NCBI RefSeq assembly: GCF_014201145.1
Contig: NZ_JACHDP010000001.1
Coordinates: 620,001-684,000, forward strand
Direction of reading: 5' to 3'
Origin: Micromonospora parathelypteridis
Lineage (GTDB): Bacteria; Actinomycetota; Actinomycetes; Mycobacteriales; Micromonosporaceae
Length of the DNA stretch: 64,000 bases
Of this stretch, positions 34,698 to 46,827 are shown in pieces (position 1 is the first letter of the stretch; every line of letters starts with the position of its first letter). The notes beneath the pieces were generated by a model. The model saw nothing but the letters and a program-made list of their open reading frames with translations. It ran no database searches and was not told the origin of the DNA. Both the position numbers and the translations under genes were made by a program.

Positions 34698-35288
34698 ATG
34701 GCTGACTTGAGCGATGCGAAGGCTGCGCTGCACCACTACCTCCAGGAGACTCGCCAGGACCTGGTCTGGAAGCTCGACGGGCTGAGCGAACGCGAAGCCA
34801 GACTGCCCCGCACCGCGACGGGCAACAACCTGTTGGGAGTCCTCAAGCACTGCCTCAACGTCGAAGCCGGCTACTTCGGGCCCACCTTTGGACGCGAGTT
34901 CCCGGCGCCCGAGGAACTGGTCCCCATGCAGGCGTACGAGGAGGACCCGCAGGCAGACTGGTACGCAGGTGAGGGCGAGACGAAGGATGGGCTGATCGAG
35001 CTGTACCGCCGTGTCGGGGTGTTCGCGGATCAGACGATCGACCAGCTACCGCTCGACGCGCCGGGGCGGGTGCCGTGGTGGCGGCCAGGCGGGCAGGACG
35101 TGACGCTGCAAAGGATCATCATCCACGTGACCACCGACCTCGCCCGTCACGCCGGCCACGCCGACATCATGCGCGAGCAGCACGACACGGCGATCGGCCT
35201 GCGGCGGGAGAGCACGAACATCCCCGACGACTACGACTGGCCGGCGTACGTCGCCAAGCTGACGAAGCTGGCTGACCGCTTCGCCTGA
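34698..35288 (+). CDS. DinB/DUF664-family protein
   Basis: The 196-residue four-helix protein matches the DinB/DUF664 group: LHHYLQETRQDLVWKLDGLSE, NLLGVLKHCLNVEAGYFG with the first metal-ligand histidine, and HVTTDLARHAGHADIMRE with two further histidines. These spaced histidines form a metal site used by thiol-dependent transferases; the substrate is unknown. It starts 163 bases from the divergent YcxB-like gene. Confidence 0.85.
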   Translation: MADLSDAKAALHHYLQETRQDLVWKLDGLSEREARLPRTATGNNLLGVLKHCLNVEAGYFGPTFGREFPAPEELVPMQAYEEDPQADWYAGEGETKDGLIELYRRVGVFADQTIDQLPLDAPGRVPWWRPGGQDVTLQRIIIHVTTDLARHAGHADIMREQHDTAIGLRRESTNIPDDYDWPAYVAKLTKLADRFA

Positions 35289-35343: not shown

Positions 35344-37941
35344 TCACGATAGGAGTTCGACGTAACCGTCGCTCCCGTGCACACGGATCCGCTGCCCATC
35401 GGCGATCAGCCGGGTGGCGTCCAGGACACTGACGACGGCTGGCAGGCCGTACTCCCGTGCGATCACCGCGCCGTGTGTCATCAGCCCTCCGACCTCCGTC
35501 ACCAGGCCTGCGATGCCGACGAAGAGGGGAGTCCAGCTCGGGTCCGTGTGGGCCGTGACGAGGATGTCACCCGGTTCGAGATCGGCCTGGGCCATGTCCA
35601 GGATGACGCGGGCGCGCCCTTCGACGGTCCCGGCGGAGACCGGTAGGCCGATCAGGGCACCGGTCGGCACGTCCTCACGCCGGTACGCCCCGGTGATGGC
35701 CTCGCCGTCGGAGGTCAGCACCCGGGGCGGGGTGAGCGCGTGGTACGACCGGAACGCGTCCCTGCGCTGCTGGATGAGCTTGTCATCCATCTGCTTCGAA
35801 CGCACGACGTCGTGGAACTCCTGGAAGGTGAGGTAGAAGACGTCCTCCGTCGTGGAGAGCACGTTGGCCTGCACGAGGCGCTCGGCTTCCTCGAGCAAGG
35901 CCAACTTGTAGATGAGGTAGCGGCTGACGATGCCGTACTTCGGGTACTCCCGGTAGCCGATGAAGGTCCGGACGCGGTCGATCATCCGCTTGGTCTCGTC
36001 GGCCTTCCGCTCCCCGTCCGGCAGTGCCCGCAGGCGTTCGAGCACCTCCTGCGTCTTCTTCTGCGCCTCCTGCCGCCCTTGCTCGAAGCGCCGCTTGGCG
36101 GCGCCCGGCTCGAAGGTCCGGACGTTGTCGAGGATCACGGGCACGAGCGTGGCCGGGCGTTCGCGCCAACGCGGCCTCGTGATGTCGATCTCGCCGACGC
36201 AGCGCATGCCGTACCGGTCGAGGTAGGCCTCGATGGCGTCGCGCGCTTCGGTCCCGCCCGCGAGCTTCGGCAGCTCGTCCAGGAAGTCGTCGTCCTCGAC
36301 GCACTCCAGGAACCGCACCACCTCCGGATGCGGGCGGATCACGTCCGCGACGTCGAGCAGCGCCAGTCCCATCTCGGACGTGACGTTGCCGGGGGCCGAC
36401 AGCGTGAGGGTGTCGGCGGCGTTCTTCTCGCCAAGCCACTCCCCCAGCCGTTCGTTGAGCCATGAGGTGGCGTCCATCCCCGCCATGATCGCCTGCATGT
36501 TCACCGGGTCACCGAGGACCCGTTTGTGCTCCTGAAAGGCTTCCAGCAGGAAGTCGAACAGCGCCGGTCCGGTCTTCGTCCGGATGTCGCGCCGCAGGGC
36601 GGCGATGGACGCCTGACTGCGCTCGATCAACGCGGTGACGATGGCCGGATCGGTCTCGAGCGGGGCCGGCGCACCGCCGGCCGGCGGCCCGCCGGGACCG
36701 CTGTCCGGGAGCGCCGGGACGAAGTCGTGGCGATCGAGGATGGTGTCCAGCGCGTCCCTGGTCAGCGGATCAGTCCTCCCCGCCATCTCCAGGAAGCCGG
36801 CGCGGCTCGCGGGCGAGCCCAGGAGCCGGGTGGCGTCGACGAAGAGCCTCCCACCGGCCTCGTGCATCGGCGCCATGGCCGTCAGCCGCCACATGGAGAG
36901 CCCGAGTGGCTTCATGGGGTCGGTCATCATCTGCTGGTGACCAACGGAGAGGTAGACGTGGTTCTCCCGGTCGCCGGCTGCGGGAATGGGGAACAGCGTG
37001 GTGATCGGGCGACTCTGCACGATCTGGAAGTCATCGTCGACCAGGCACCATTCGATGTCCTGCGGGCTGCCGAAGTGCGCCTCGATCCGCCGCCCGAGCC
37101 GCACGAGCCGAACGACCTGCGCATCGGTCAGCGCCGGCTGCTCCTGCCGCTGCGGGTCGATCGTCACCTCCTGCGTTCCGCCGGTCGGCAGGGCGTGGAC
37201 GGCACGCTGTTTGGCGGCGACCGCCCTGTCGACGACCTCGCCGTCGCGCACCTTGAAGACGTCCGGGTTCACCCGGCCGGAGACCAGGGCCTCACCGAGG
37301 CCGAAGCTGGCGTCAACGGTGGCGACCTTCCGGTTGCCGGTGACGGGGTCGGCGGTGAACAGGATGCCGGCCGCGTCCGAGAGGACCATCCGCTGCACGA
37401 CCACGGCCATGTGGGCGGTCCGGTGGTCGACGCCGTTTCGCAGGCGGTAGATCACGGCGCGCTCGGTGAACAGGGATGCCCAGCACCGGCTGACGTGCTG
37501 GAGGATCGCCGCCGGGCCCACGACGTTCAGGTACGTGGTCTGCTGGCCTGCGAAGGAGGCCGTCGGCGTGTCCTCTGCCGTTGCGCTGGATCGCACGGCG
37601 TAGGCGGCCTGCTCGCCGAGCTGGCCGAGCGCGCGGGTGATCGCCGAAGCGAGATCGTCCGGGATGGTGATCCCTTCGATGGTCCGGCGGATCTCCGCGC
37701 TGAGCGTGCGGATCGTCTCCCGGTCATCCGGGTTCAGCCGCGACAACTGATCGAGCCGCTCGTCGATCGAGGGCGCTTCCGCCATGATCCGCCGGAAGGC
37801 GGCCGTCGTGACGCAGAAGCCGGCCGGTACGCGGATGCCTTCGATCCGGGACAGCCCGCCCAGGTTCGCGGCCTTGCCGCCAACGACCGCGACCAGCGTC
37901 TCGTCGACCTCTTGAAGATCCAACACGGACTGCTCGATCAT
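35344..37941 (-). CDS. rph: Rifampin phosphotransferase
   Basis: The protein has 865 residues from the ATG at 37941, which has GGAGG seven bases upstream; characterised Rph enzymes are about 867 residues. The N-terminal ATP-grasp domain shows VGGKAANLGGLSRIEGIRVP, AYAVRSSATAEDTPTASFAG and FTADPVTGNRK (residues 20-330). A central antibiotic-binding region follows. The C-terminal swivel domain has GGLMTHGAVIAREYGLPAV with the phosphorylated histidine at about residue 823, close to position 825 of the Listeria enzyme. It transfers the beta-phosphate of ATP to the ansa-chain hydroxyl of rifamycins, giving AMP and phosphate. A rifamycin-associated element lies upstream. It could be mistaken for PEP synthase, but length and motif spacing favour Rph. 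Confidence 0.9.
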   Translation of the reverse strand: MIEQSVLDLQEVDETLVAVVGGKAANLGGLSRIEGIRVPAGFCVTTAAFRRIMAEAPSIDERLDQLSRLNPDDRETIRTLSAEIRRTIEGITIPDDLASAITRALGQLGEQAAYAVRSSATAEDTPTASFAGQQTTYLNVVGPAAILQHVSRCWASLFTERAVIYRLRNGVDHRTAHMAVVVQRMVLSDAAGILFTADPVTGNRKVATVDASFGLGEALVSGRVNPDVFKVRDGEVVDRAVAAKQRAVHALPTGGTQEVTIDPQRQEQPALTDAQVVRLVRLGRRIEAHFGSPQDIEWCLVDDDFQIVQSRPITTLFPIPAAGDRENHVYLSVGHQQMMTDPMKPLGLSMWRLTAMAPMHEAGGRLFVDATRLLGSPASRAGFLEMAGRTDPLTRDALDTILDRHDFVPALPDSGPGGPPAGGAPAPLETDPAIVTALIERSQASIAALRRDIRTKTGPALFDFLLEAFQEHKRVLGDPVNMQAIMAGMDATSWLNERLGEWLGEKNAADTLTLSAPGNVTSEMGLALLDVADVIRPHPEVVRFLECVEDDDFLDELPKLAGGTEARDAIEAYLDRYGMRCVGEIDITRPRWRERPATLVPVILDNVRTFEPGAAKRRFEQGRQEAQKKTQEVLERLRALPDGERKADETKRMIDRVRTFIGYREYPKYGIVSRYLIYKLALLEEAERLVQANVLSTTEDVFYLTFQEFHDVVRSKQMDDKLIQQRRDAFRSYHALTPPRVLTSDGEAITGAYRREDVPTGALIGLPVSAGTVEGRARVILDMAQADLEPGDILVTAHTDPSWTPLFVGIAGLVTEVGGLMTHGAVIAREYGLPAVVSVLDATRLIADGQRIRVHGSDGYVELLS

Positions 37942-38059
37942 CGGGATACCTCCGCGGCAACCGTGCTCAGTTGTGCTGCGTTGGCCGAAAGCACACCCAC
38001 GTCGTACCCCCGTTTTTTCGTCGGTGCCGTTTACGGCCGCCGATTCTGCGGCATGACCC

Positions 38060-38078
38060 GGGCCTTGCCGCAAGCCCC
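38060..38078 (-). promoter_or_regulatory. Rifamycin-associated element (RAE) upstream of rph
   Basis: The 19-bp imperfect palindrome GGGCCTTGCCGCAAGCCCC (perfect core CTTGC-C-GCAAG) lies 119 bases before the rph start. Read on the minus strand, it agrees with the consensus I recall for the RAE found upstream of rifamycin-inactivating genes in actinomycetes, which mediates rifamycin-induced expression. The match is from memory and should be checked against the published consensus. Confidence 0.8.
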
Positions 38079-38301
38079 CGGTGCGCTATATGTTAGAAGT
38101 GGCAGGGAGACGGATCTTCGTGCCTTTTCTTTTTGTCCTTCTTCCGCCGCCGGCGGAGGTCCTCCGGCCGCCTGGGGCGTGCCGGGTCGCCTCCTGCGGA
38201 TTGCGGACCCCCACGGCCGGCACAGCGCCCCGCAGTCCCGGACGCCGGTGACTTCGGCCGCGTCGCCAGCCGCAGGATACGACGAGAAGGGTCACGGGCC
38301 C

Positions 38302-39708
38302 GTGCTGCTGAGTTGGCTGCTCGCCTCAACCGACGAACGCCCGGATGCGATCCGGATCGACGATCGGGCGGTGTCCTGGGTGGAGTTGCGGCGGCTCGCC
38401 GCTGCCGTGGCCGACGACCTGCGTGGCGTGGACCGCGTCGCGGTGGACGCGACGGCTAGTCTGCCAACGGTGGTCGGTGTCGTCGGCGCGCTGCTGGCCG
38501 GGTCGGCGGTGGTGCCGGTGCCGCCGGACGCCGGGCCCATGGAACGTGAGCACATCCTGCGCGACTCGGCCGCCGGGGCGATGCTCGTGTCGGCGGACGA
38601 CGAGCGCCGGGATACACCCGAGGGGCTGCCGCTCATTCGGATCGATCTGGCGCGACTCTCGGACACCAGTCATCCGGAGCCGGATCCGGCTGGCATCGCG
38701 CTGATTCTCTACACCAGCGGCACCACCGGCGCGCCGAAGGGCGTGACGCTCTCCCGCCGAGCCATCGCCGCCTGCCTCGACGGGCTCGCCGCGGCGTGGG
38801 AGTGGACGCCGGAGGACCTGCTCGTGCACGGCCTGCCGCTCTTCCACGTCCACGGCCTGGTGCTCGGCGTGCTCGGCCCTCTGCGAGTGGGTGGTCGGCT
38901 GCACCACGTGGGTCAGCCCCGCCCCGAGCGGTATGCGGCCGCGAACGGCTCCCTGTATTTCGGCGTCCCCACCATCTGGTCCCGGGTGGCCGCCGACACG
39001 ACCTCGGCCCGGGCACTGCGCGCCGCGCGGCTGCTGGTGTCGGGCAGCGCGGCTCTGCCCACGACGGTCTTCGCCGACCTGGCCGGGCTCACCGGTCACC
39101 AGATCGTCGAGCGCTACGGGATGACCGAAACGTTGATCACCGTGAGCGCCAGCGCTGCCGGACCCCGCCGCCCGGGCGCCGTCGGGCTGCCGCTACCGGG
39201 GGTACGGACCCGCGTGGTGGACGAACGGGGCCGCTCGGTGCCCACCGACGGGGTGGCGATCGGCGAGCTGGAGGTCTGCGGCCCGACGCTCTTCGACGGG
39301 TACCTGAAACGGCCCGACGCTGATGCGGCTGCCCGCACCGCGGACGGATGGTTCCGCACCGGGGACGTGGCCACGATCGGGCCGGACGGCTGGCATCGCA
39401 TCGTCGGCCGGGCGGCCACCGACCTGATCAAGAGCGGCGGCTACCGGATCGGCGCCGGGGAGGTCGAGGACGCGCTACTGGCGCATCCCGGTGTCCGGGA
39501 GGCCGCGGTGGTGGGCACGCCCCATCCCGACCTCGGTCAGCAGGTGACGGCGTACGTGGTGGGTGACGGCATCCACGAGGCGGAACTGATCGACTTCGTG
39601 GCCCGGCAGTTGTCGACACACAAGCGTCCCCGGCAGGTGCGGCTCGTCGAGGCCCTTCCCCGCAACGCTCTCGGCAAGGTGCAGAAGAGTCGGCTCACCG
39701 CGGAGTGA
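38302..39708 (+). CDS. matB: Malonyl-CoA synthetase (MatB-like acyl-CoA synthetase)
   Basis: From the GTG at 38302 the product has 468 residues, the size of Streptomyces MatB. It matches that enzyme closely in adenylation motifs: LYTSGTTGAPKGVTLSRRA (P-loop), HGLPLFHVHGLVLGVLGPLR, ERYGMTETLITVS, YLKRPDADAAARTADGWFRTGD and VGRAATDLIKSGGYRIGAGEVE, with the C-terminal RNALGKVQKSRL holding the catalytic lysine. MatB forms malonyl-CoA (and methylmalonyl-CoA) from the acid, CoA and ATP. It ends 37 bases from the convergent tctA. The long open frame upstream is an antisense artefact of rph. Confidence 0.85.
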   Translation: MLLSWLLASTDERPDAIRIDDRAVSWVELRRLAAAVADDLRGVDRVAVDATASLPTVVGVVGALLAGSAVVPVPPDAGPMEREHILRDSAAGAMLVSADDERRDTPEGLPLIRIDLARLSDTSHPEPDPAGIALILYTSGTTGAPKGVTLSRRAIAACLDGLAAAWEWTPEDLLVHGLPLFHVHGLVLGVLGPLRVGGRLHHVGQPRPERYAAANGSLYFGVPTIWSRVAADTTSARALRAARLLVSGSAALPTTVFADLAGLTGHQIVERYGMTETLITVSASAAGPRRPGAVGLPLPGVRTRVVDERGRSVPTDGVAIGELEVCGPTLFDGYLKRPDADAAARTADGWFRTGDVATIGPDGWHRIVGRAATDLIKSGGYRIGAGEVEDALLAHPGVREAAVVGTPHPDLGQQVTAYVVGDGIHEAELIDFVARQLSTHKRPRQVRLVEALPRNALGKVQKSRLTAE

Positions 39709-39745: not shown

Positions 39746-41251
39746 CTACTCCTCCTCGGCGAACACGACCTCGCGTCGCCGGTGGATCGCCGGGACGACG
39801 GCGAGGACGAGCGCTGCCACGGCCAGGGCCAGGAGCACTGCGGAGATCGGTCGGGTCAGGAAGACCGACGGGTCGCCGCGGGAAATGATGAGCGCTCGCC
39901 GCAGGTTCTCCTCCAGCAGGGGCCCGAGGACGAAGCCGAGCAGCAGCGGCGCCGGCTCGCAGCCGCACTTGATCAGGATGTAGCCCAGGATCCCGAAGAA
40001 CGCGATCGCGTAGACGTCGAACGGGTTGAACTTCAGGGAGTACGTGCCGATCGCGGCGAACAGGATGATCATCGGGAACAACACCTGGTACGGGATACGC
40101 AGCATCCGCACCCAGAGGCCGATCAGTGGCAGGTTCAGCAGCAGGAGCAGCACGTTGCCGATCCACATCGACGCGATCAGGCCCCAGAACAGCGCCGGTT
40201 CGTCGTTGATGACGTTCGGGCCGGGGGTGATGCCGTGGACGATGAACGCGCCGACCATCAGCGCCATCACCGGATGGGCCGGCAGACCCAGCGTGAGCAG
40301 CGGGATGAACGACGTCTGTGCGGCGGCGTTGTTCGCCGACTCCGGGCCGGCGACACCCTCGATCGCCCCTTTTCCGAATTCCTGCGGCCGTTTCGAGATC
40401 CGCTTCTCGACCGCGTACGAGGTGAACGAGGCCAGCACGTGACCGCCGCCGGGCAGGACGCCGAGCGCGGCACCGAGACCGGTGCCCCGCAGGATCGGGC
40501 CGACGATCCGGCGCCGGTCCTCGCGTGTAGGCCAGAGGTTCCGCACCTTGCTGACGATCGCCGTGCGGGTCTGTTCGTTCTCCAGGTTGCGTAGGATCTC
40601 GGCCACCCCGAACATGCCGACGGCGACCGACACGAAGTCGATGCCGCCGTACAGCTCGCGCTGGTCGAGCACGAACCGGGGCGTGCCGGTGTAGATGTCC
40701 TGCCCGACCGTGCCGAGCAGCACACCGAGCGCGATCATCGCCAGCGCCTTGAGCGCGGTGCCTCGCGCCAGCGAGATCGACACGATCAGGCCGAGCAGCA
40801 CCAGCGAGAAGTACTCGGCCGGGCCGAACTTCAACGCGACGCGGGCCAGCGGTGGGGCCGCGACGGCCAACGCGACGGTGGCCACCGTACCCGCGATGAA
40901 GGACCCGATCGCGGCGGTGGCCAAAGCCGCGCCAGCCCGGCCCTGTCGGGCCATCTCGTGCCCGTCCAGCGCGGTGACCGCCGCTGAGGACTCACCGGGC
41001 AGATTGATCAGGATGGCGGTCGTCGAGCCGCCGTACTGGGCGCCGTAATAGATTCCCGCCAGCATGATCAGCGCCGTCACCGGCTCGAAGCTGAACGTGA
41101 TCGGCAGCAGCATCGCCACCGTCGCAGTGGGCCCGATGCCAGGCAGCACGCCGACCGCCGTCCCGAGCAGCACACCCACGAAGCAGTAGAGGACGTTCTG
41201 GATCAGGAAGGCGGTCGAAAAGCCCAGCGCGAGGTTGTCGAGGAGTTCCAT
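39746..41251 (-). CDS. tctA: Tripartite tricarboxylate transporter large membrane subunit (TctA)
   Basis: The 501-residue protein has about 12 membrane helices and the TctA signature GVLPGIGPTATVAMLLPITF near residue 40, followed by the paired motif GGSTTAILINLPGESSAAVT and later LGVLPGGGHVLASFTSY. It moves the carboxylate across the membrane with TctB, using the binding protein TctC. The ATG at 41251 lies inside the 3' end of tctB (22-base overlap). It is the last gene of the tctCBA operon. Confidence 0.9.
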   Translation of the reverse strand: MELLDNLALGFSTAFLIQNVLYCFVGVLLGTAVGVLPGIGPTATVAMLLPITFSFEPVTALIMLAGIYYGAQYGGSTTAILINLPGESSAAVTALDGHEMARQGRAGAALATAAIGSFIAGTVATVALAVAAPPLARVALKFGPAEYFSLVLLGLIVSISLARGTALKALAMIALGVLLGTVGQDIYTGTPRFVLDQRELYGGIDFVSVAVGMFGVAEILRNLENEQTRTAIVSKVRNLWPTREDRRRIVGPILRGTGLGAALGVLPGGGHVLASFTSYAVEKRISKRPQEFGKGAIEGVAGPESANNAAAQTSFIPLLTLGLPAHPVMALMVGAFIVHGITPGPNVINDEPALFWGLIASMWIGNVLLLLLNLPLIGLWVRMLRIPYQVLFPMIILFAAIGTYSLKFNPFDVYAIAFFGILGYILIKCGCEPAPLLLGFVLGPLLEENLRRALIISRGDPSVFLTRPISAVLLALAVAALVLAVVPAIHRRREVVFAEEE

Positions 41252-41271
41252 GTTCCAATCCGGCCGACGCG

Positions 41272-41751
41272 TCAGAACCCGAGCCACGGACCCCAGAGCG
41301 GGATCCGTAGCTGAAGTCCGACGATGAAGATGAGCGTGCTGGCCACGGTCAGTCCGGCGGTTACGGCAACAGCCGTGAGCAGCCGTACGCGGGAGCTGGC
41401 CAGCGTGGTGAGCAGTGCGGTCACCGCCGACGTCGGCACGAATCCGAGACGCCGGACAGTGAATCCGAAGAACAGGACCGCGAGCGCGATGACGGCGACC
41501 GCCCGCCAGGGGACCGGCCCGAAGGAGACCACCTCGCCGGCGATGAGGCCCTTGATGACGATCGCCAGGCCCAGGGTGGCCACCACCCCGCCGACCAGCA
41601 GCGGGAAGGCGCCGGGGCCCATCCGCAGTGGGCTGCCCAACTCGTAGTTGAGCGACCCCACCACGAACGCGCCACCGATCAGAACGAAGACTCCACCGGC
41701 GAGGACGTCCGGGAAGGACCGGCGGCGCTCCACGTCAGGAGACCTTGACAC
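41272..41751 (-). CDS. tctB: Tripartite tricarboxylate transporter small membrane subunit (TctB)
   Basis: The 159-residue protein has four hydrophobic helices: VLAGGVFVLIGGAFVVGSL, GAFPLLVGGVVATLGLAIVIKG, WRAVAVIALAVLFFGFTV, and a C-terminal pair ending in LRIPLWGPWLGF. The LRMGPGAFP loop after helix 1 is characteristic of TctB. Its GTG start lies 17 bases inside the end of tctC, which indicates translational coupling. Confidence 0.88.
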   Translation of the reverse strand: MSRSPDVERRRSFPDVLAGGVFVLIGGAFVVGSLNYELGSPLRMGPGAFPLLVGGVVATLGLAIVIKGLIAGEVVSFGPVPWRAVAVIALAVLFFGFTVRRLGFVPTSAVTALLTTLASSRVRLLTAVAVTAGLTVASTLIFIVGLQLRIPLWGPWLGF

Positions 41752-42757
41752 CGGCGTCGGCGATGACCTTTGACCAGGTGCCGAGCTGCTCTTCGAGCTT
41801 GGCCCGGTGTGCCTGCGGGGTCGCGGCCTCGGCCTGGACCGGCGCGGTGCCGAGCTTGGCCATCTGATCGATGACCTTCTGGTCGGCCAGTGCCACCTTC
41901 AGAGCCTCGGACAGCTTCTGAACGATCTCTGCGGGCGTGTCGGCCGGAACGTAGAGCCCGTGCCACACGCTCACCGTGAGTTGAGGCAGCCCCGCCTCGG
42001 CCGTGGTGGGCAGGTCGGGAAGACTCTTCACCCGCTCCGGCGTGGTGACCGCGTACGCCTTCACCTCGCCCGCCGCGATCTGGCCGCTGGTGTTGGTCGT
42101 CTGGTCACACATGAAGTCGACCTGGCCGCCGACGAGGTCGGTCAGCGCGGGGCCCGTGCCCTGGTACGGGACCTCCTGAAGCTTGACGCCGGCGGCGGTC
42201 TGGAACAGCAGGCCGCACAGGTGGGACGCGGCGCCGATGCCGGCGTTGGCCAGCGTGACCTTGTTGGCGTTCGCCTTCACGTAGGTCACGAGCTCCTGAA
42301 GCGTCGTCGGCGCGAAGTCCTTTCGGGCGACAACCGTCATCGGCACCTCGGTGACCAGCCCGACCGTCTCGAAGTCCTCAAGCGGCTTGTAGCCCAGTTT
42401 CTGGTAGAGGGCGGGCGCCGTTGACATGCCGATGTGGTGCATGAGCACGGTGTAGCCGTCTGGCTCGGCCTGCGCGACCTCGCCGGCGCCGACCGTGCCG
42501 CCCGCACCCTCGACGTTCTGGACGACGATTTTGCCGCCGAGCTTTGCGGCCATCGGCTCGGCGATCATGCGGGTGACGGTGTCCGTCGGGCCGCCCGCAC
42601 TGAACGGCACGACGAACGTGATGTTCTGGTCCGGGTAGCCGCTGGCGTCACCTCCGCCGGTGGCGCCTCCGTTGCCGGAACACGCGGCGAGGAGCGTAGC
42701 GAGGCCGATCGCGGCGCTCATCCGCACGACGGCCCGGTACCTGCTGGTCGTTTCCAT
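41735..42757 (-). CDS. tctC: Tripartite tricarboxylate transporter binding lipoprotein (TctC)
   Basis: The 340-residue protein has a lipoprotein signal with lipobox LLAAC near residue 26. The mature part matches TctC/Bug receptors: ITFVVPFSAGGPTDTVTR, VEGAGGTVGAGEVAQAEPDGYTVL, LANAGIGAASHLCG, EVPYQGTGPALTDLVGGQVDF and LPDLPTTAEAGLP. Such receptors bind carboxylates through two water molecules rather than basic side chains, so the ligand cannot be read from sequence. The neighbouring matB suggests malonate or a related dicarboxylate. It is the first gene of tctCBA. Confidence 0.9.
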   Translation of the reverse strand: METTSRYRAVVRMSAAIGLATLLAACSGNGGATGGGDASGYPDQNITFVVPFSAGGPTDTVTRMIAEPMAAKLGGKIVVQNVEGAGGTVGAGEVAQAEPDGYTVLMHHIGMSTAPALYQKLGYKPLEDFETVGLVTEVPMTVVARKDFAPTTLQELVTYVKANANKVTLANAGIGAASHLCGLLFQTAAGVKLQEVPYQGTGPALTDLVGGQVDFMCDQTTNTSGQIAAGEVKAYAVTTPERVKSLPDLPTTAEAGLPQLTVSVWHGLYVPADTPAEIVQKLSEALKVALADQKVIDQMAKLGTAPVQAEAATPQAHRAKLEEQLGTWSKVIADAGVKVS

Positions 42758-42836
42758 GTTGCGGCCTCCTCCTCAGCGCATCCACGTTGGTCGACTAGTG
42801 CGCGGCCTCAGTCTCGGCTGGCGGGGGCGCGGATGG

Positions 42837-42884
42837 TGTCAGATAAATCCCAAGGAACGCGCCGGATGTCAGCGGAATCCCAAG
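42837..42884. repeat. 30-bp-period direct repeat in the tct/TctDE spacer, candidate response-regulator site
   Basis: Two copies of TGTCAGnnnAATCCCAAG occur at 42837-42854 and 42867-42884, exactly 30 bp apart (three helical turns). They lie between the divergent tctCBA operon and the two-component system, 80-130 bases upstream of tctC. Direct repeats at helical spacing are typical of OmpR-type regulators. Confidence 0.6.
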
Positions 42885-42918
42885 AACTGAGGGGATAACG
42901 GGGTGTCGGCCCTGGGCG

Positions 42919-42924
42919 TACAAT
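42919..42924 (+). promoter_or_regulatory. -10 hexamer for a leaderless response-regulator transcript
   Basis: TACAAT ends eight bases before the ATG at 42933. With no Shine-Dalgarno sequence near, this fits transcription starting at or next to the start codon, and it supports 42933 as the start. Confidence 0.45.
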
Positions 42925-42932
42925 CCGCCACT

Positions 42933-43616
42933 ATGCGGATCACCGTCATCGAGGACGACGACCGCGTGGCGCGGGGTCTGGTGACCGTCCTTGCCCAGGC
43001 GGGCTTCGAGGTTCACCGCATCGCCACCGCCGCGGAGGCAGTGCGCGCCGTCCCAGCCGATGTGGTCCTCGTCGACCTGGGTCTGCCCGACGGAGACGGG
43101 CTCGACGTGATCCGCAAGCTGCGTGACCGCCCGGAGACGGCCGTCATCGCCGTGACGGCACGAGCCGAGGAGCACGAGCGGGTCCGTGGCTTGCGCGCCG
43201 GTGCGGACGACTACATCGTGAAGCCGTTCGGCGTCTCGGAGTTGCTGGCCCGGATTGACGCCGTGCTGCGCCGCACCCGGGTGGCTCGGGCGCTGTCCCA
43301 TCCGGACGGGCAGCTCGTCCTCGGCCCGATGCGAATCGGCGTCGGCACCCGCGAGGTCACCGTCGAGGGCACGCCCGTGACGCTGACCCGCAAGGAGTTC
43401 GAGCTGCTCCTGCTGCTGGGCCGGCGGGCGCCGAATGTGGTGAGCCGCGACGTCATCCTCGACCAGATCTGGGGCGCCACCTGGGAGTCATCGAGCCGCA
43501 CGCTGGACACCCACATCGCGGCGTTGCGGCAGAAGCTCGGGCCCGCTGTGCTCATCCGCACGATCCACGGGGTCGGCTATCGGCTCCTGGCCGATCAACC
43601 GGAGCTGATTGGCTGA
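42933..43616 (+). CDS. TctD-like OmpR-family response regulator
   Basis: The 227-residue protein has a receiver domain (ITVIEDDDRVARGLV; VVLVDLGLPDGDG with the phosphorylated aspartate; VTARAEEHERVRGLRAGADDYIVKPF) and a winged-helix domain (TLTRKEFELLLLLGRRAPNVVSRDVI; SSRTLDTHIAALRQKLG; IRTIHGVGYRL). It is divergent from tctCBA with direct repeats between them and is followed six bases later by its kinase, so it probably controls the transporter. Confidence 0.9.
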   Translation: MRITVIEDDDRVARGLVTVLAQAGFEVHRIATAAEAVRAVPADVVLVDLGLPDGDGLDVIRKLRDRPETAVIAVTARAEEHERVRGLRAGADDYIVKPFGVSELLARIDAVLRRTRVARALSHPDGQLVLGPMRIGVGTREVTVEGTPVTLTRKEFELLLLLGRRAPNVVSRDVILDQIWGATWESSSRTLDTHIAALRQKLGPAVLIRTIHGVGYRLLADQPELIG

Positions 43617-43622
43617 CGCGCC

Positions 43623-45104
43623 GTGCATCGTCGCCTGCTCGTCGTCCTGGTGCCCCTGGCGGTGCTGCTCGTCGCGGCGCTCGGGGTGCCGCTCAGCGTC
43701 ACCGTGGCCGAGCGGGAGATGCAGGAGACCTACGTCGACCGGCTCGGCGACGTCGGCCGCTTCGCGTCGCTGGCCGAGACCGCGATGTCGACCGGACGGA
43801 CCGAGGCGCTCCACCAGGAACTGACGCGCTACCACCGGCTGTATGGCATCCCGGTCGCGGTGATCGACCCGTCGGGCAAGGTGCTGCTCGGGTCGGCCAG
43901 CGCCTACCAGGACGCGGCTGCCGCCGAGCCGGCGTTGTCCCGGATCGTGACTGCCGCGCTGGCCGGGGCGCGGTCCGAACCGTCCGGGGAGTGGGCGCCG
44001 TGGGGAGACTCCGCCCTCGTGGTGGCCGAGCCGGTGGGCCGGGACAGTGAGGTCGTCGGCGCCGTCGTGACGATCTCCGACCTGTCGAGGACGCGCGAGC
44101 GCATCCTCGTACGCTGGGCCCGGCTCGCCGGGCTCGGGCTGTTGCCGTTGATCGCGCTGGTAGCTGTCGCGTGGCCGGTTTCGGCCTGGGTGCTGCGGCC
44201 GGTGTGGAGGCTGGACGCGGCGACCTCGCGGATCTCCAAGGGTGACCTGACGATCCGCGCCGACGCCGAGGCCGGGCCGATCGAGCTGCGGCGGCTGGCC
44301 GGGTCGTTCAACGCCATGATGGACGCCGTCGAGAACGCCGCGCAGCGGCAGCGGGCATTCGTCTCCGATGCTTCGCACCAGTTGCGCAACCCGTTGACCA
44401 GCCTCCGGCTGGCGGTGGAGAGCCTTGAGGCACACCTGCGGCCGGAGGGCAACGGGCAGCAGGTGTACGACGTCGCCGTCGACGAGCTGAAGGCGATGCA
44501 GCGGTTGCTGAACTCGCTGCAGGCCAGTGCGCGGATGGAGAGCATGCGGACGGCGTCGCCGGTGGAACTCGACGACGTACTGACGACCAGAGTCGAGCGT
44601 TGGCGGGCGTTGACGGCGACGGCGGGGCAGACGCTGGCGGTCGACGTGCCACCGGGATTGCGGCTGCTGGAGCCTCCTGGCGGATTGGGCAGCATCCTGG
44701 ACGAGCTGATCAGCAACGCGTTACGGCTGTCGGACGCGCAGGTGGTGCAGGTGACCGCCCGCAGCGTCCCCGGTGCCGCGACCGCCGGGGACGGCACCGA
44801 CTCCGCGGCCGGAGGCATGGTCACCATCACCGTCCGCGACAATGGCCAGGGGATCGACGTCGCCGAGAGGGCCCAGGCGGTACGGCGGTTCTGGCGGTCG
44901 CCGCGGCACCAGAACGTGCCCGGCACCGGCCTGGGACTGGCGATCTGCGCCGACCTGGTCCTTGGGGCCGGGGGCGAGCTGCGGCTGGAGCGGGGCCTGC
45001 CGCGTCCGGACGGTTCGGGGTACGGGTTGGCCGCGGTGATCGCGTTGCCGGTCGTTCCGCGAGTGGCGTCGTCGCCGGACGCCCCGGCTCGATGGCCGGC
45101 CTGA
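43623..45104 (+). CDS. TctE-like sensor histidine kinase
   Basis: The 493-residue protein starts at a GTG. It has an N-terminal helix, an outer domain of about 130 residues, a second helix (LAGLGLLPLIALVAVAWPVSAWVL), a HAMP-like linker, and a kinase core: VSDASHQLRNPLTSLRLAVE with the phospho-accepting histidine near residue 256, then ILDELISNALRLSD, DNGQGIDVAERAQAV and GTGLGLAICADL for ATP binding. With the preceding regulator it forms a two-component system probably sensing the transported carboxylate. Confidence 0.9.
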   Translation: MHRRLLVVLVPLAVLLVAALGVPLSVTVAEREMQETYVDRLGDVGRFASLAETAMSTGRTEALHQELTRYHRLYGIPVAVIDPSGKVLLGSASAYQDAAAAEPALSRIVTAALAGARSEPSGEWAPWGDSALVVAEPVGRDSEVVGAVVTISDLSRTRERILVRWARLAGLGLLPLIALVAVAWPVSAWVLRPVWRLDAATSRISKGDLTIRADAEAGPIELRRLAGSFNAMMDAVENAAQRQRAFVSDASHQLRNPLTSLRLAVESLEAHLRPEGNGQQVYDVAVDELKAMQRLLNSLQASARMESMRTASPVELDDVLTTRVERWRALTATAGQTLAVDVPPGLRLLEPPGGLGSILDELISNALRLSDAQVVQVTARSVPGAATAGDGTDSAAGGMVTITVRDNGQGIDVAERAQAVRRFWRSPRHQNVPGTGLGLAICADLVLGAGGELRLERGLPRPDGSGYGLAAVIALPVVPRVASSPDAPARWPA

Positions 45105-45143
45105 GGACCCGAGCCTGGATGCCCCCGTTTTCGCTCCTGAAGG

Positions 45144-46100
45144 TCAGCGCTTGCGGTCACGGAACCATTCGGCCGCGCCTGGATGCAGCGGGATCGATGC
45201 GGTGGAGATCCCGGTACGCACGTTGATCTGCCACGCTTCGGGGATGGCTTCGGCGTCGTCGCGACTTTGGGAGGCGATCGTCCCGGTGTGCCGGAAGATG
45301 GTGTCGGTGATGGCGTAGACCAGGTCGTCGGGCAGGTCGTTACGCGCGAGAAGCACGTTCGGCACAGCGACGGTACGGGTGGCCGGGACGCCGGCGTAGG
45401 CAGTCGCGGGAATCGTGGCCGGGGCATAGGGACCCGGGTACGCCGTGAAGAGCGCCTCTGCCTGCGCGTCCAACGGGATCAGCCGGATGGGGTGCCGCTG
45501 CGCCAGTTCCGCGATGGCAGGTGTCGGAACGCCGGTCAGGGAGAACATCGCGTCGATCACACCGTCGCGCAGTTTCCCCGCCGATTCGGCCTGGCTGAGG
45601 AAGCGACCGTCGGCGTTCACCGGGCCGAGCTGCAGAACCCGCAGCGACGTGAACTCCGTTCCCGAGTCGCGGGCACCGAGGGATACGCGCTTGCCCTCGA
45701 GATCCCGGAACCCACTGATCGCCGAATCCGCCATGACCACGAGGTGGAGGTGACTGTCGTAGAGCCGGCACACCGCCGAAAGGCCCTCGGGCGCGCTGCC
45801 GTCCGCCGTGATCAGCGCGTCCAGGCTGGTCAGCCCAAGGTGCACCTCGCCGGCTCGCAGCATCCGGATGTTGTCGGTGGACGCGCCGCTCGGCACCGTG
45901 GTCACCGCGGCGCCCGGCACATGCTCGGAGATGTGTTCGGCCAGGGCACCGCCGATGCGCCGATACACGGCTCCCGCTGGCCCGGTGGCCAGTCGTAGGT
46001 GGACCTTGTCGACCTCGGGCTGCCGGGAACACCCGGCAAGCATCCCCCCGGCGGCCAGAAGCACCGCCCGCCGGCTGATCCCTGCCTCCAGCGGCACCAT
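45144..46100 (-). CDS. TAXI-family TRAP transporter binding lipoprotein
   Basis: From the ATG at 46100 the product has 318 residues with a lipoprotein/Tat-like signal (RRAVLLAAGGMLAGCS). The rest matches TAXI receptors: LRLATGPAGAVYRRIGGALAEHIS, VTTVPSGASTDNIRMLRAGEVHLGLT, GKRVSLGARDSGTEFTSLRVL and the C-terminal SIPLHPGAAEWFRDR. No TRAP membrane subunits are nearby. It is convergent with the TctE-like kinase. TATCAT on the minus strand (46107-46112) six bases upstream fits a leaderless start, so the open frame to 46367 is not used. Confidence 0.85.
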   Translation of the reverse strand: MVPLEAGISRRAVLLAAGGMLAGCSRQPEVDKVHLRLATGPAGAVYRRIGGALAEHISEHVPGAAVTTVPSGASTDNIRMLRAGEVHLGLTSLDALITADGSAPEGLSAVCRLYDSHLHLVVMADSAISGFRDLEGKRVSLGARDSGTEFTSLRVLQLGPVNADGRFLSQAESAGKLRDGVIDAMFSLTGVPTPAIAELAQRHPIRLIPLDAQAEALFTAYPGPYAPATIPATAYAGVPATRTVAVPNVLLARNDLPDDLVYAITDTIFRHTGTIASQSRDDAEAIPEAWQINVRTGISTASIPLHPGAAEWFRDRKR

Positions 46101-46308
46101 GCCGAAATGATACGGACGGCGTCGACGATCGCCGATGACCTCAGGTGCGACGCACAGCCGACATCGCCCGAGCCGCCCGGCGCGCCAGCCGCGGATCGTA
46201 CGACCTGATCGATGCCGCGACCAGGGGCATCCGGGCAACCCGACATCCCCGGATGCTCTTGGCATCGGAGGGTCTAGGACGCCTTGCCGCGTCAGGGATC
46301 GTGCCCGG

Positions 46309-46827
46309 TCACGGCGCGAACGCGGAGGGCAGGCCGAGTTCGGCCCTGGCGACCTCGATGAACCCACGCTCGGCCGCCCAGAGGGCGTCGAACCGCTCGG
46401 CCGGCAATGCGTCGACGCTGTTGCCCGCCCGAACAGCCGCCAGAAGCCTGGCCTGGCGCACCAACTCCGACGAACCGCTCACCACCTCGGGTCGCCCGGC
46501 CACCAGCCGGAGCGCGGTCTTGGTGCTCTCCAACCGCTCCCGGTAGCGGCTGCCCTCGTCGTCGAAGAACGGCATGAGGTCACCCGGATCGCGCGGGCGC
46601 GGCACCGCGGTGATGCGGGCGGCCGGGTTGAGGACGAAGGCCACGTACTCCCGGGCCGCGCCGATGAACTCGATGTACGCGTTCAGCCGGATGTCACGCC
46701 ACTGTCGGTCCTGGTCGCGGCGCCACAGCCGGTCCTGAGCCCGGACGGTGAGCCATCCGCCGATCAGGACCGCCAGCATCGTCGTCGCAGCGGTGACACC
46801 CGCCTGGATCAGACTCACCGGCACCAT
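46309..46827 (-). CDS. Membrane-anchored protein of unknown function
   Basis: The 172-residue protein has one N-terminal membrane helix (LIQAGVTAATTMLAVLIGGWL) followed by a basic helix-rich cytoplasmic domain (RAQDRLWRRDQDRQWRDIRLNAYIEFIGAAREY). Similar short proteins with an RxxxxxLxAYxxFL-type helix are common in actinobacteria, with no assigned role. Upstream sequence is slightly AT-rich. Confidence 0.65.
   Translation of the reverse strand: MVPVSLIQAGVTAATTMLAVLIGGWLTVRAQDRLWRRDQDRQWRDIRLNAYIEFIGAAREYVAFVLNPAARITAVPRPRDPGDLMPFFDDEGSRYRERLESTKTALRLVAGRPEVVSGSSELVRQARLLAAVRAGNSVDALPAERFDALWAAERGFIEVARAELGLPSAFAP

What the first reader, a model, noticed from the sequence alone, without database searches (positions are those of the whole stretch)
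35344..38078. Rifampin phosphotransferase with a rifamycin-associated element
The near-full-length match of Rph and the 19-bp RAE-like palindrome 119 bases upstream indicate an inducible rifamycin-resistance gene in an environmental actinomycete.
Basis: partly seen in the sequence, partly recalled or inferred. Interest (0 to 1): 0.75.

Follow-up and report, generated by a model that had tools for sequence, protein, structure and literature searches.

The report
Rifamycin-resistance gene with two-way promoter
An actinobacterium carries a rifampin-inactivating enzyme gene whose 19-letter control element looks like the centre of a symmetric two-way promoter, with a stop-signal-like hairpin on the side facing away from the gene; this gives a concrete, testable lead on how bacteria sense rifamycins.

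Summary
Window 35344-37941 (-) encodes an 865-aa rifampin phosphotransferase (NCBIfam equivalog, 1621 bits; key residues kept). The 19-bp palindrome lies 118 bp upstream. The genome has one other exact copy, in front of helR; relatives carry it before helR, rox-type monooxygenase, rph, glycosyltransferase and arr genes. Gene and element are a new member of a known kind.

What goes beyond the finding is the anatomy. In 127 of 133 distinct element copies, collected with the 19-bp pattern alone, both flanks carry a -10-like hexamer at exactly the same distance from the dyad centre. The antisense one is followed, at its expected start site, by a hairpin, often with a T-run behind it: 85 of 128 against 7 for shuffled sequence, with locus-specific complementarity. 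In Xanthomonadaceae arr loci the hairpin letters differ but place and shape are kept (11 of 11). So the element looks like the shared core of a divergent promoter pair whose antisense side makes a roughly 30-nt terminated RNA. Transcription and induction were not measured. How rifamycin is sensed (polymerase competition or an unknown dimeric regulator) stays open. I found no description of this anatomy in the papers held; the three defining papers were not readable.

The parts
35344..37941 (-). rph, rifampin phosphotransferase, 865 aa, ATG start at 37941
   Evidence: NF041857 1621.5 bits; PDB 5hv1/5fbs full length; PPDK_N and PEP-utilizers domains
35473..35475 (-). codon of the predicted catalytic histidine, His823 (GGLMTHG), equivalent to His825 of the Listeria enzyme
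38060..38078 (-). rifamycin-associated element, 19-bp palindrome; holds TTGCGG (-) and TTGCCG (+), the overlapping -35-like hexamers of two divergent promoters
   Evidence: arms conserved even when left free
38043..38048 (-). sense -10-like hexamer CAGAAT of the rph promoter, at the conserved distance from the dyad centre
   Evidence: 128 of 133 loci
38089..38094 (+). antisense -10-like hexamer TATGTT, here 1 bp closer to the dyad than the standard distance
   Evidence: 129 of 133 loci at the standard distance
38101..38124 (+). terminator-like hairpin at the expected start of the antisense RNA
   Evidence: fold -13.2 kcal/mol, z -1.88; family evidence; not called by the strict scanner
38125..38135 (+). 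T-rich run behind the hairpin (TTTTCTTTTTG)
38302..39708 (+). divergent acyl-CoA synthetase gene (PRK07787-like; GTG start chosen by eye), about 165 bp beyond the hairpin; probably not part of the system

Best explanation
The locus is a rifamycin-resistance unit: Rph (family function) phosphorylates and inactivates rifamycins, and the element puts rph under rifamycin control together with helR, the other gene of this genome that has it. The element is the shared core of two back-to-back promoters. The sense promoter (-10 CAGAAT) reads rph; the antisense promoter (-10 TATGTT) reads away from it and runs at once into a terminator hairpin, giving an RNA of about 30 nt. As both promoters overlap at the element, I expect them to compete. 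Shown by sequence: gene, element, both hexamers, hairpin, their fixed spacing and conservation. Inferred: that both promoters fire, that the antisense RNA ends at the hairpin, and that rifamycin shifts use to the sense side. On how rifamycin is sensed I lean, without a real margin, to RNA polymerase itself (about 0.4); a dedicated dimeric regulator is as likely (about 0.4).
For: Rph identity. Same element at helR in the own genome. Element upstream of known rifamycin-resistance families: 45 helR, 30 FAD monooxygenase, 15 rph, 12 glycosyltransferase, 7 arr and 2 MFS of 133. Symmetric hexamers: A at 22 and T at 26 bp from the centre, sense 128, antisense 129, both 127 of 133, median of other distances 2; both in 45/45 helR, 28/30 monooxygenase, 14/15 rph, 12/12 glycosyltransferase, 6/7 arr; the set was gathered with the 19-bp pattern only. 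A pattern with hexamers and core required and arms free hits 138 of 393 genomes of the class, reversed control 0; a version with one base too many in the antisense-side spacer (and two more required bases) hits 0 of 393. Antisense hairpin: score at least 6 in 85 of 128 (one shuffle per locus: 7) and in 43 of 69 of a second set (shuffled 3); own arms pair better than swapped arms, 5.32 against 4.13 (sd 0.12, 0 of 300) and 5.45 against 4.13. Xanthomonadaceae arr: antisense hexamer and hairpin with T-rich tail in 11 of 11, with different stem letters. In mycobacteria the element is reported to overlap the -35 region of the mapped downstream helD promoter (review).
Against: No transcript was measured. 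A strict promoter/terminator scan of the region found nothing on either strand, and Rfam has no match. The antisense hexamer is not closer to TATAAT than the sense one (mean 3.44 against 3.90; better in 11, equal in 44, worse in 73 of 128), so antisense dominance is not supported by letters. About a third of loci lack a clear hairpin (43 of 128 below score 6; 45 listed below 5 with the somewhat stricter scoring). In the Xanthomonadaceae set of 16 the swap test shows no excess (own 4.5, swapped 4.71, sd 0.40; its scoring misses short loops and the stems are nearly alike), and the 5 non-arr loci have no such hairpin; in 4 of those 5 the sense hexamer also lacks its second-position A. A polymerase arrested by rifamycin on the antisense side should block, not free, the sense side, so simple competition has a sign problem. 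A published upstream sense promoter P1 in mycobacteria has no conserved counterpart in my profile.
Confidence: 0.7

Rival explanations
1. A dedicated dimeric regulator binds the palindrome and switches both promoters; rifamycin, or a consequence of its action, is its signal. The antisense promoter and terminator are side products of a symmetric operator.
For: The outer arms, which no -35 hexamer needs, stay 91-100% conserved when the search leaves them free (positions 0-2, 4, 14, 16-18; 69 loci). A review and a 2026 paper consider an unknown transcription factor. The 19-bp hexamer spacing is long for an unaided promoter (recalled knowledge).
Against: No gene family other than the target recurs much near the element: at most 8 of 114 named loci, and at most 2 of 11 Xanthomonadaceae arr loci, within the stretches held. 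The same element sits in another phylum, where the regulator would have to be present too. It does not explain why the antisense hexamer and the hairpin are kept.
Confidence: 0.4
2. RNA polymerase is the sensor through promoter competition, as in the convergent two-promoter system of Bacillus subtilis, but in a back-to-back layout.
For: Two -10-like hexamers with fixed geometry around one element; precedent in B. subtilis; the module persists in Xanthomonadaceae, where polymerase is a factor sure to be present; no linked regulator found.
Against: Sign problem of an arrested polymerase on the overlapping site; in B. subtilis a deletion that brings the promoters into steric conflict abolished the response; the arms are conserved beyond the hexamers; antisense hexamer not stronger by letters.
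Confidence: 0.4
3. The symmetric A/T positions and the inverted repeat are further contacts of one large protein complex on DNA, not promoters and a terminator.
For: The flanks are conserved at DNA level; transcription is unproven; the strict scan is negative.
Against: The conserved positions are the second and sixth of a hexamer, as in -10 elements, with different letters on the two sides. The repeat sits where the antisense RNA would start, is followed by T, keeps pairing through paired changes in actinobacteria, and has different letters in Xanthomonadaceae. In two loci the antisense side reads into a plausible gene (L136 AraC-like, L018 methyltransferase-like; names by eye).
Confidence: 0.1
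4. The protein is an ordinary phosphoenolpyruvate synthase and the palindrome a chance match.
For: The fold family is shared and several models named phosphoenolpyruvate synthase also match.
Against: Equivalog score, C-terminal histidine, rifampin-site residues, and an element shared with helR and with other rifamycin genes. The genome's other relative lies elsewhere, matches at 34-57% identity in pieces, and has no element copy near it.
Confidence: 0.02

Closest known systems
Rifampin phosphotransferase (Rph; Listeria monocytogenes RPH-Lm, PDB 5fbs/5hv1)
   Same: Full-length match, domain order with C-terminal swivel histidine, ATP-site and rifampin-site residues kept
   Different: Nothing notable; five named actinobacterial copies are 74-84% identical over at least 99% of the length
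Rifamycin-associated element (RAE) of Actinobacteria
   Same: 19-bp palindrome upstream of rifamycin-resistance genes; overlaps a -35 region as reported for mycobacterial helD P2
   Different: Described in the papers I could read as a 19-bp palindrome of unknown mechanism; here it is the centre of a symmetric divergent module with a terminator-like antisense side, and it also occurs in 15 of 119 Xanthomonadaceae genomes
Bacillus subtilis helD/pps dual-promoter rifampicin alarm
   Same: Sense and antisense promoter in front of helD and of an rph-type gene
   Different: There the promoters are convergent, 39 bp between starts, without the element; here they are divergent, overlap at a palindrome, and the antisense RNA would have an immediate terminator
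MerR-type promoters
   Same: Palindrome and 19-bp spacing (abstract of PMC1526738 in the listing)
   Different: There the palindrome lies inside the spacer; here its centre lies over the -35 hexamers

Membership tests
Rifampin phosphotransferase | Passes curated equivalog NF041857 | tested here: met
   1621.5 bits, cut-off 999; the narrower NF000283 (RPH_KJ151292) is not reached, 1407.7 against 1700
Rifampin phosphotransferase | ATP-grasp domain first, phosphohistidine domain last | tested here: met
   PPDK_N 18-315, PEP-utilizers 789-859
Rifampin phosphotransferase | Residues Lys22, Arg117, Thr136, Gln336/337, Thr523, Arg666, Glu667, Lys670, His825 of RPH-Lm | tested here: met
   Read by eye off the alignment, motif positions; roles from passages of PMC4844700
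Rifampin phosphotransferase | Phosphorylates rifampin, confers resistance | not testable with these tools
   Needs enzyme and MIC assays
Rifamycin-associated element | 19-bp palindrome with the published consensus | tested here: inconclusive
   Pattern taken from the window and recalled; published letters not readable; recurrence before the known gene families supports identity
Rifamycin-associated element | Upstream of rifamycin-resistance genes | tested here: met
   rph and helR in the own genome; 111 of 133 loci assigned to six gene families
Rifamycin-associated element | Required for induction by rifamycins | not testable with these tools
   Reported for M. abscessus helD in a review
B. 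subtilis convergent dual-promoter alarm | Two convergent promoters in front of the gene | tested here: not met
   The hexamers point away from each other
MerR-type regulated promoter | Palindrome within the spacer between -35 and -10 | tested here: not met
   Centre 22 bp from the conserved A of each -10-like hexamer, over the TTG hexamers

The most novel reading that the evidence does not exclude
The RAE is not just an operator: it is the core of a self-contained divergent promoter pair in which a futile antisense promoter, stopped by a terminator that begins at its first transcribed bases, reports whether RNA polymerase is working; rifamycin changes that cycle and hands the shared site to the sense promoter. 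This would be a second, independently built, polymerase-based rifamycin sensor, spread between actinobacteria, Xanthomonadaceae and perhaps Chloroflexota.
Probability: 0.33. Interest if true: 0.85.

Novelty: new variant of a known kind. Interest (0 to 1): 0.6.

Why it matters
How the RAE senses rifamycins is stated as unsolved in a 2022 review and in a January 2026 paper. A conserved antisense -10 and an immediate terminator-like hairpin, in front of five families of resistance genes, turn a vague 'unknown factor' into two concrete models that a few reporter and in vitro transcription tests can separate. The Xanthomonadaceae copies suggest that the control module travels with resistance genes between phyla.

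Tried and rejected
RAE as an RNA structure in the 5' leader: with the predicted starts on both sides it lies upstream of both transcripts, so it would be in neither RNA (inference). A sense promoter using the TATAGC box upstream of the element: its sixth base is C in 95% of loci, while the antisense reading has its two hallmark bases in 98 and 97%. Regulator linked to the element: no widely recurring neighbour family (first gave clusters that overlap the target genes as shadow frames, which one search excluded). Antisense promoter stronger by consensus: not supported. MAFFT alignment for covariation: the 3' arms did not align because loops vary, so arms were paired locus by locus. Whole 48-nt antisense leaders fold better than shuffles only mildly (mean z -1.12, 42 of 128 below -2; sense leaders +0.43, 4 of 128). 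The GU over AC excess (68:37 and 47:25) is weak, since the 5' arm may be conserved for other reasons. Rows dropped: occurrences with less than 100 bp of flank and one duplicate (134 to 133); five rows that miss a hexamer at the exact distance, while the own rph copy was kept, before n=128; one of 70 before n=69; one row (L018).

Full report
Observation. The minus strand holds GGGGCTTGCGGCAAGGCCC at 38060-38078. The gene most likely starts at the ATG 37941, seven bases behind GGAGG, and encodes 865 residues; the longer TTG start of the ORF list is an extension. In the whole 7.01-Mb genome the exact element occurs twice, here and 109 kb away at 549111. The second copy stands before a gene whose first 481 codons, the part held, pass the HelR model (NF041254, 828 bits, cut-off 750).

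Gene. The protein passes the equivalog for rifamycin-inactivating phosphotransferase (1621.5 bits, cut-off 999), but not the narrower model NF000283 (1407.7 of 1700). It aligns end to end with solved Listeria Rph. The residues that a structural study names for ATP handling, rifampin-phosphate contacts and catalysis (passages of PMC4844700) are kept in the alignment, among them His823 for His825. The genome has one other relative, matched in pieces at 34-57% identity. The one rpoB found has the rifampicin-region motif [33 protein letters not shown]; from memory it lacks the commonest resistance changes, so the polymerase is probably sensitive.

Element across genomes. With up to one mismatch, 280 of 354 genomes of the family have it, against 17 with a reversed-control hit. 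From all loci fetched by then I kept 133 distinct exact copies with 100 bp on both sides. The first long open frame behind 111 of them falls in six clusters: 45 helR, 30 FAD-dependent monooxygenase (rox type), 15 rph, 12 glycosyltransferase, 7 arr, 2 MFS transporter (helR and rph by comparison with the own-genome genes, the other names by eye from translations). The other 22 include contig ends, misread frames, reversed copies and evident chance matches such as L022 and L085.

A module larger than 19 bp. Conservation runs from about -34 to +45 around the element. Measured from the dyad centre, an A at 22 and a T at 26 bp, the second and sixth base of a hexamer, are present on the sense side in 128, on the antisense side in 129 and on both in 127 of 133 loci; the median for other distances is 2. 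Sense hexamers are mostly CAGAAT or CACAAT, antisense ones mostly TACGTT, TAAGTT or TATGTT. Of the six misses, one is the window's own rph copy, whose antisense hexamer is 1 bp nearer the dyad; one (L011) has a longer sense spacer; two (L022, L085) are probable chance matches; two (L053, L105) are proteobacterial. A pattern that requires both hexamers and the core but leaves the arms free matched 138 of 393 genomes of the class, reversed control 0. A version with one base too many in the antisense-side spacer, and two more required bases, matched 0 of 393, an unplanned negative control. From I took 70 places, the 30 returned as loci and 40 picked from the capped list, one per genome; all 70 have the standard spacing. 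In the 69 with enough flank the arms are still conserved: G 96, 99, 99%, C 100%, and on the right G 100%, C 99, 99, 91%. So the arms matter beyond any -35 hexamer. In that set 39 genes are helR, 15 rox type, 5 rph, 2 glycosyltransferase and 8 unassigned; one of the 8 (L185) looks like an ABC-transporter ATPase.

Antisense hairpin. Where the antisense promoter would start its RNA, that strand carries an inverted repeat such as TGGCAAGGAG-loop-CTCCTTGCC followed by T. Stems of at least 8 pairs occur in 81 of 128 loci, against 20.9 for dinucleotide shuffles and 5 on the sense side; T count in the eight bases behind is 3.6 against 1.7. A second scoring gives 85 of 128 (one shuffle per locus: 7) and, in the free-arm set, 43 of 69 (shuffled 3). 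Stem position 3 reads CG in 47, AT in 24 and GC in 5 of 85. Own arms pair better than arms exchanged between loci: 5.32 against 4.13 (sd 0.12; none of 300 permutations; 119 loci after removing near copies) and 5.45 against 4.13 (66 loci); the sense side scores 0.93 and 1.30. In the window the hairpin is 38101-38124, -13.2 kcal/mol, z -1.88, followed by TTTTCTTTTTG. Results against: the strict scanner found no promoter or terminator in the region, Rfam has no match, the longer 48-nt leader folds only mildly better than shuffles (mean z -1.12), and 45 of 128 loci are listed with a score below 5.

Other phyla. By their titles ten named loci are not actinobacterial; eight of them (without L022 and L085) were checked again. 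Five of the eight (L040, L048, L052, L069, L114) have both hexamers at the standard distances, L053 and L089 one, L105 neither. In the family of L114 (Vulcaniibacterium, Xanthomonadaceae) 15 of 119 genomes have an exact element, centre included, reversed control 1 of 119; of 200 genomes of its phylum only the centre has it. Of the 15 loci, ten stand before arr, four before rox-type genes and one before an rph-like gene. In the ten arr loci plus L048 the antisense hexamer is TAAATT at the standard distance in 11 of 11, and a hairpin with a T-rich tail follows in 11 of 11 (z -1.4 to -4.6), with stem letters of GGGAGGCGC type unlike the actinobacterial ones. Against: the five rox- and rph-type loci have no such hairpin; in four of them the sense hexamer lacks its second-position A; and the swap test on these 16 loci shows no excess (own 4.5, swapped 4.71, sd 0.40), where the scoring misses short loops and the stems are nearly alike. 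No gene family other than the target is shared by more than 2 of the 11 arr loci, nor by more than 8 of 114 named loci, within the stretches held.

Reading. The simplest account is a divergent promoter pair sharing the element, with an antisense transcript of about 30 nt that is little more than its own terminator. This agrees with a review's statement that the element overlaps the -35 region of the downstream helD promoter mapped in mycobacteria (section 9 of PMC10719064). It does not reproduce the upstream sense promoter P1 named there. The 2026 B. subtilis work (abstract, passages, sections 48 and 49 of PMC12802891) shows that a sense/antisense pair can sense rifampicin; that pair is convergent and lacks the element, so this is analogy, not membership. 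Rifamycin sensing here may rest on polymerase competition or on an unknown dimeric regulator; the conserved arms favour the second, while the conserved antisense side, the cross-phylum spread and the absence of a linked regulator favour the first.

Print. Searches in the open-access library (listings), passages of PMC8655204 and PMC7283461 and term look-ups in three further papers gave no description of an antisense promoter, a symmetric -10 pair or a terminator at the RAE. The three primary papers on RAE and HelR are not held, so this is not proof of novelty.

Verdict. Gene and element: new member of a known kind. The divergent, terminator-bearing architecture of the element: a new variant, well supported as sequence anatomy, untested as function. 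Host: kinship tables (354 genomes in the family, 159 others in the genus) and genome size suggest Micromonospora; this is inference.

Noticed in passing
window 38089-38094: The window's rph copy is the only one of 133 whose antisense hexamer lies 1 bp nearer the dyad (spacer 18 instead of 19); effect unknown.
   Followed up: partly
L185, L017, L137: Elements stand before an ABC-transporter ATPase (L185) and before MFS transporters (L017, L137; names by eye), possible extra members of the rifamycin response.
   Followed up: no
L066:1486-1504 and 2006-2024: Two divergently oriented elements about 500 bp apart in one Streptomyces locus: one before helR, the other before a frame that was not assigned.
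   Followed up: no
L040, L052, L069, L089: Element copies in contigs labelled Chloroflexi or Chloroflexota, before rox- or rph-type genes; these are metagenome-assembled, so mis-binning is possible.
   Followed up: partly
L136 and L018: Loci without hairpin where the antisense side reads into an AraC-like regulator or a methyltransferase-like gene; names by eye.
   Followed up: partly
window 34698-35288 (+): Gene with a mycothiol-S-transferase/DinB domain, convergent with rph.
   Followed up: no
window 39746-46367: Genes that look by eye like a tripartite tricarboxylate transporter (TctA, TctB, TctC), a two-component pair and a TAXI-type binding protein.
   Followed up: no
sense leader, positions +38 to +69 from element start, profile of the 133 loci: The 5' leader of the resistance genes has a weaker conserved stretch (about GGCCGAGGCCAGAACCTGCGGAAATGGGAG) shared between different genes; function unknown.
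   Followed up: no
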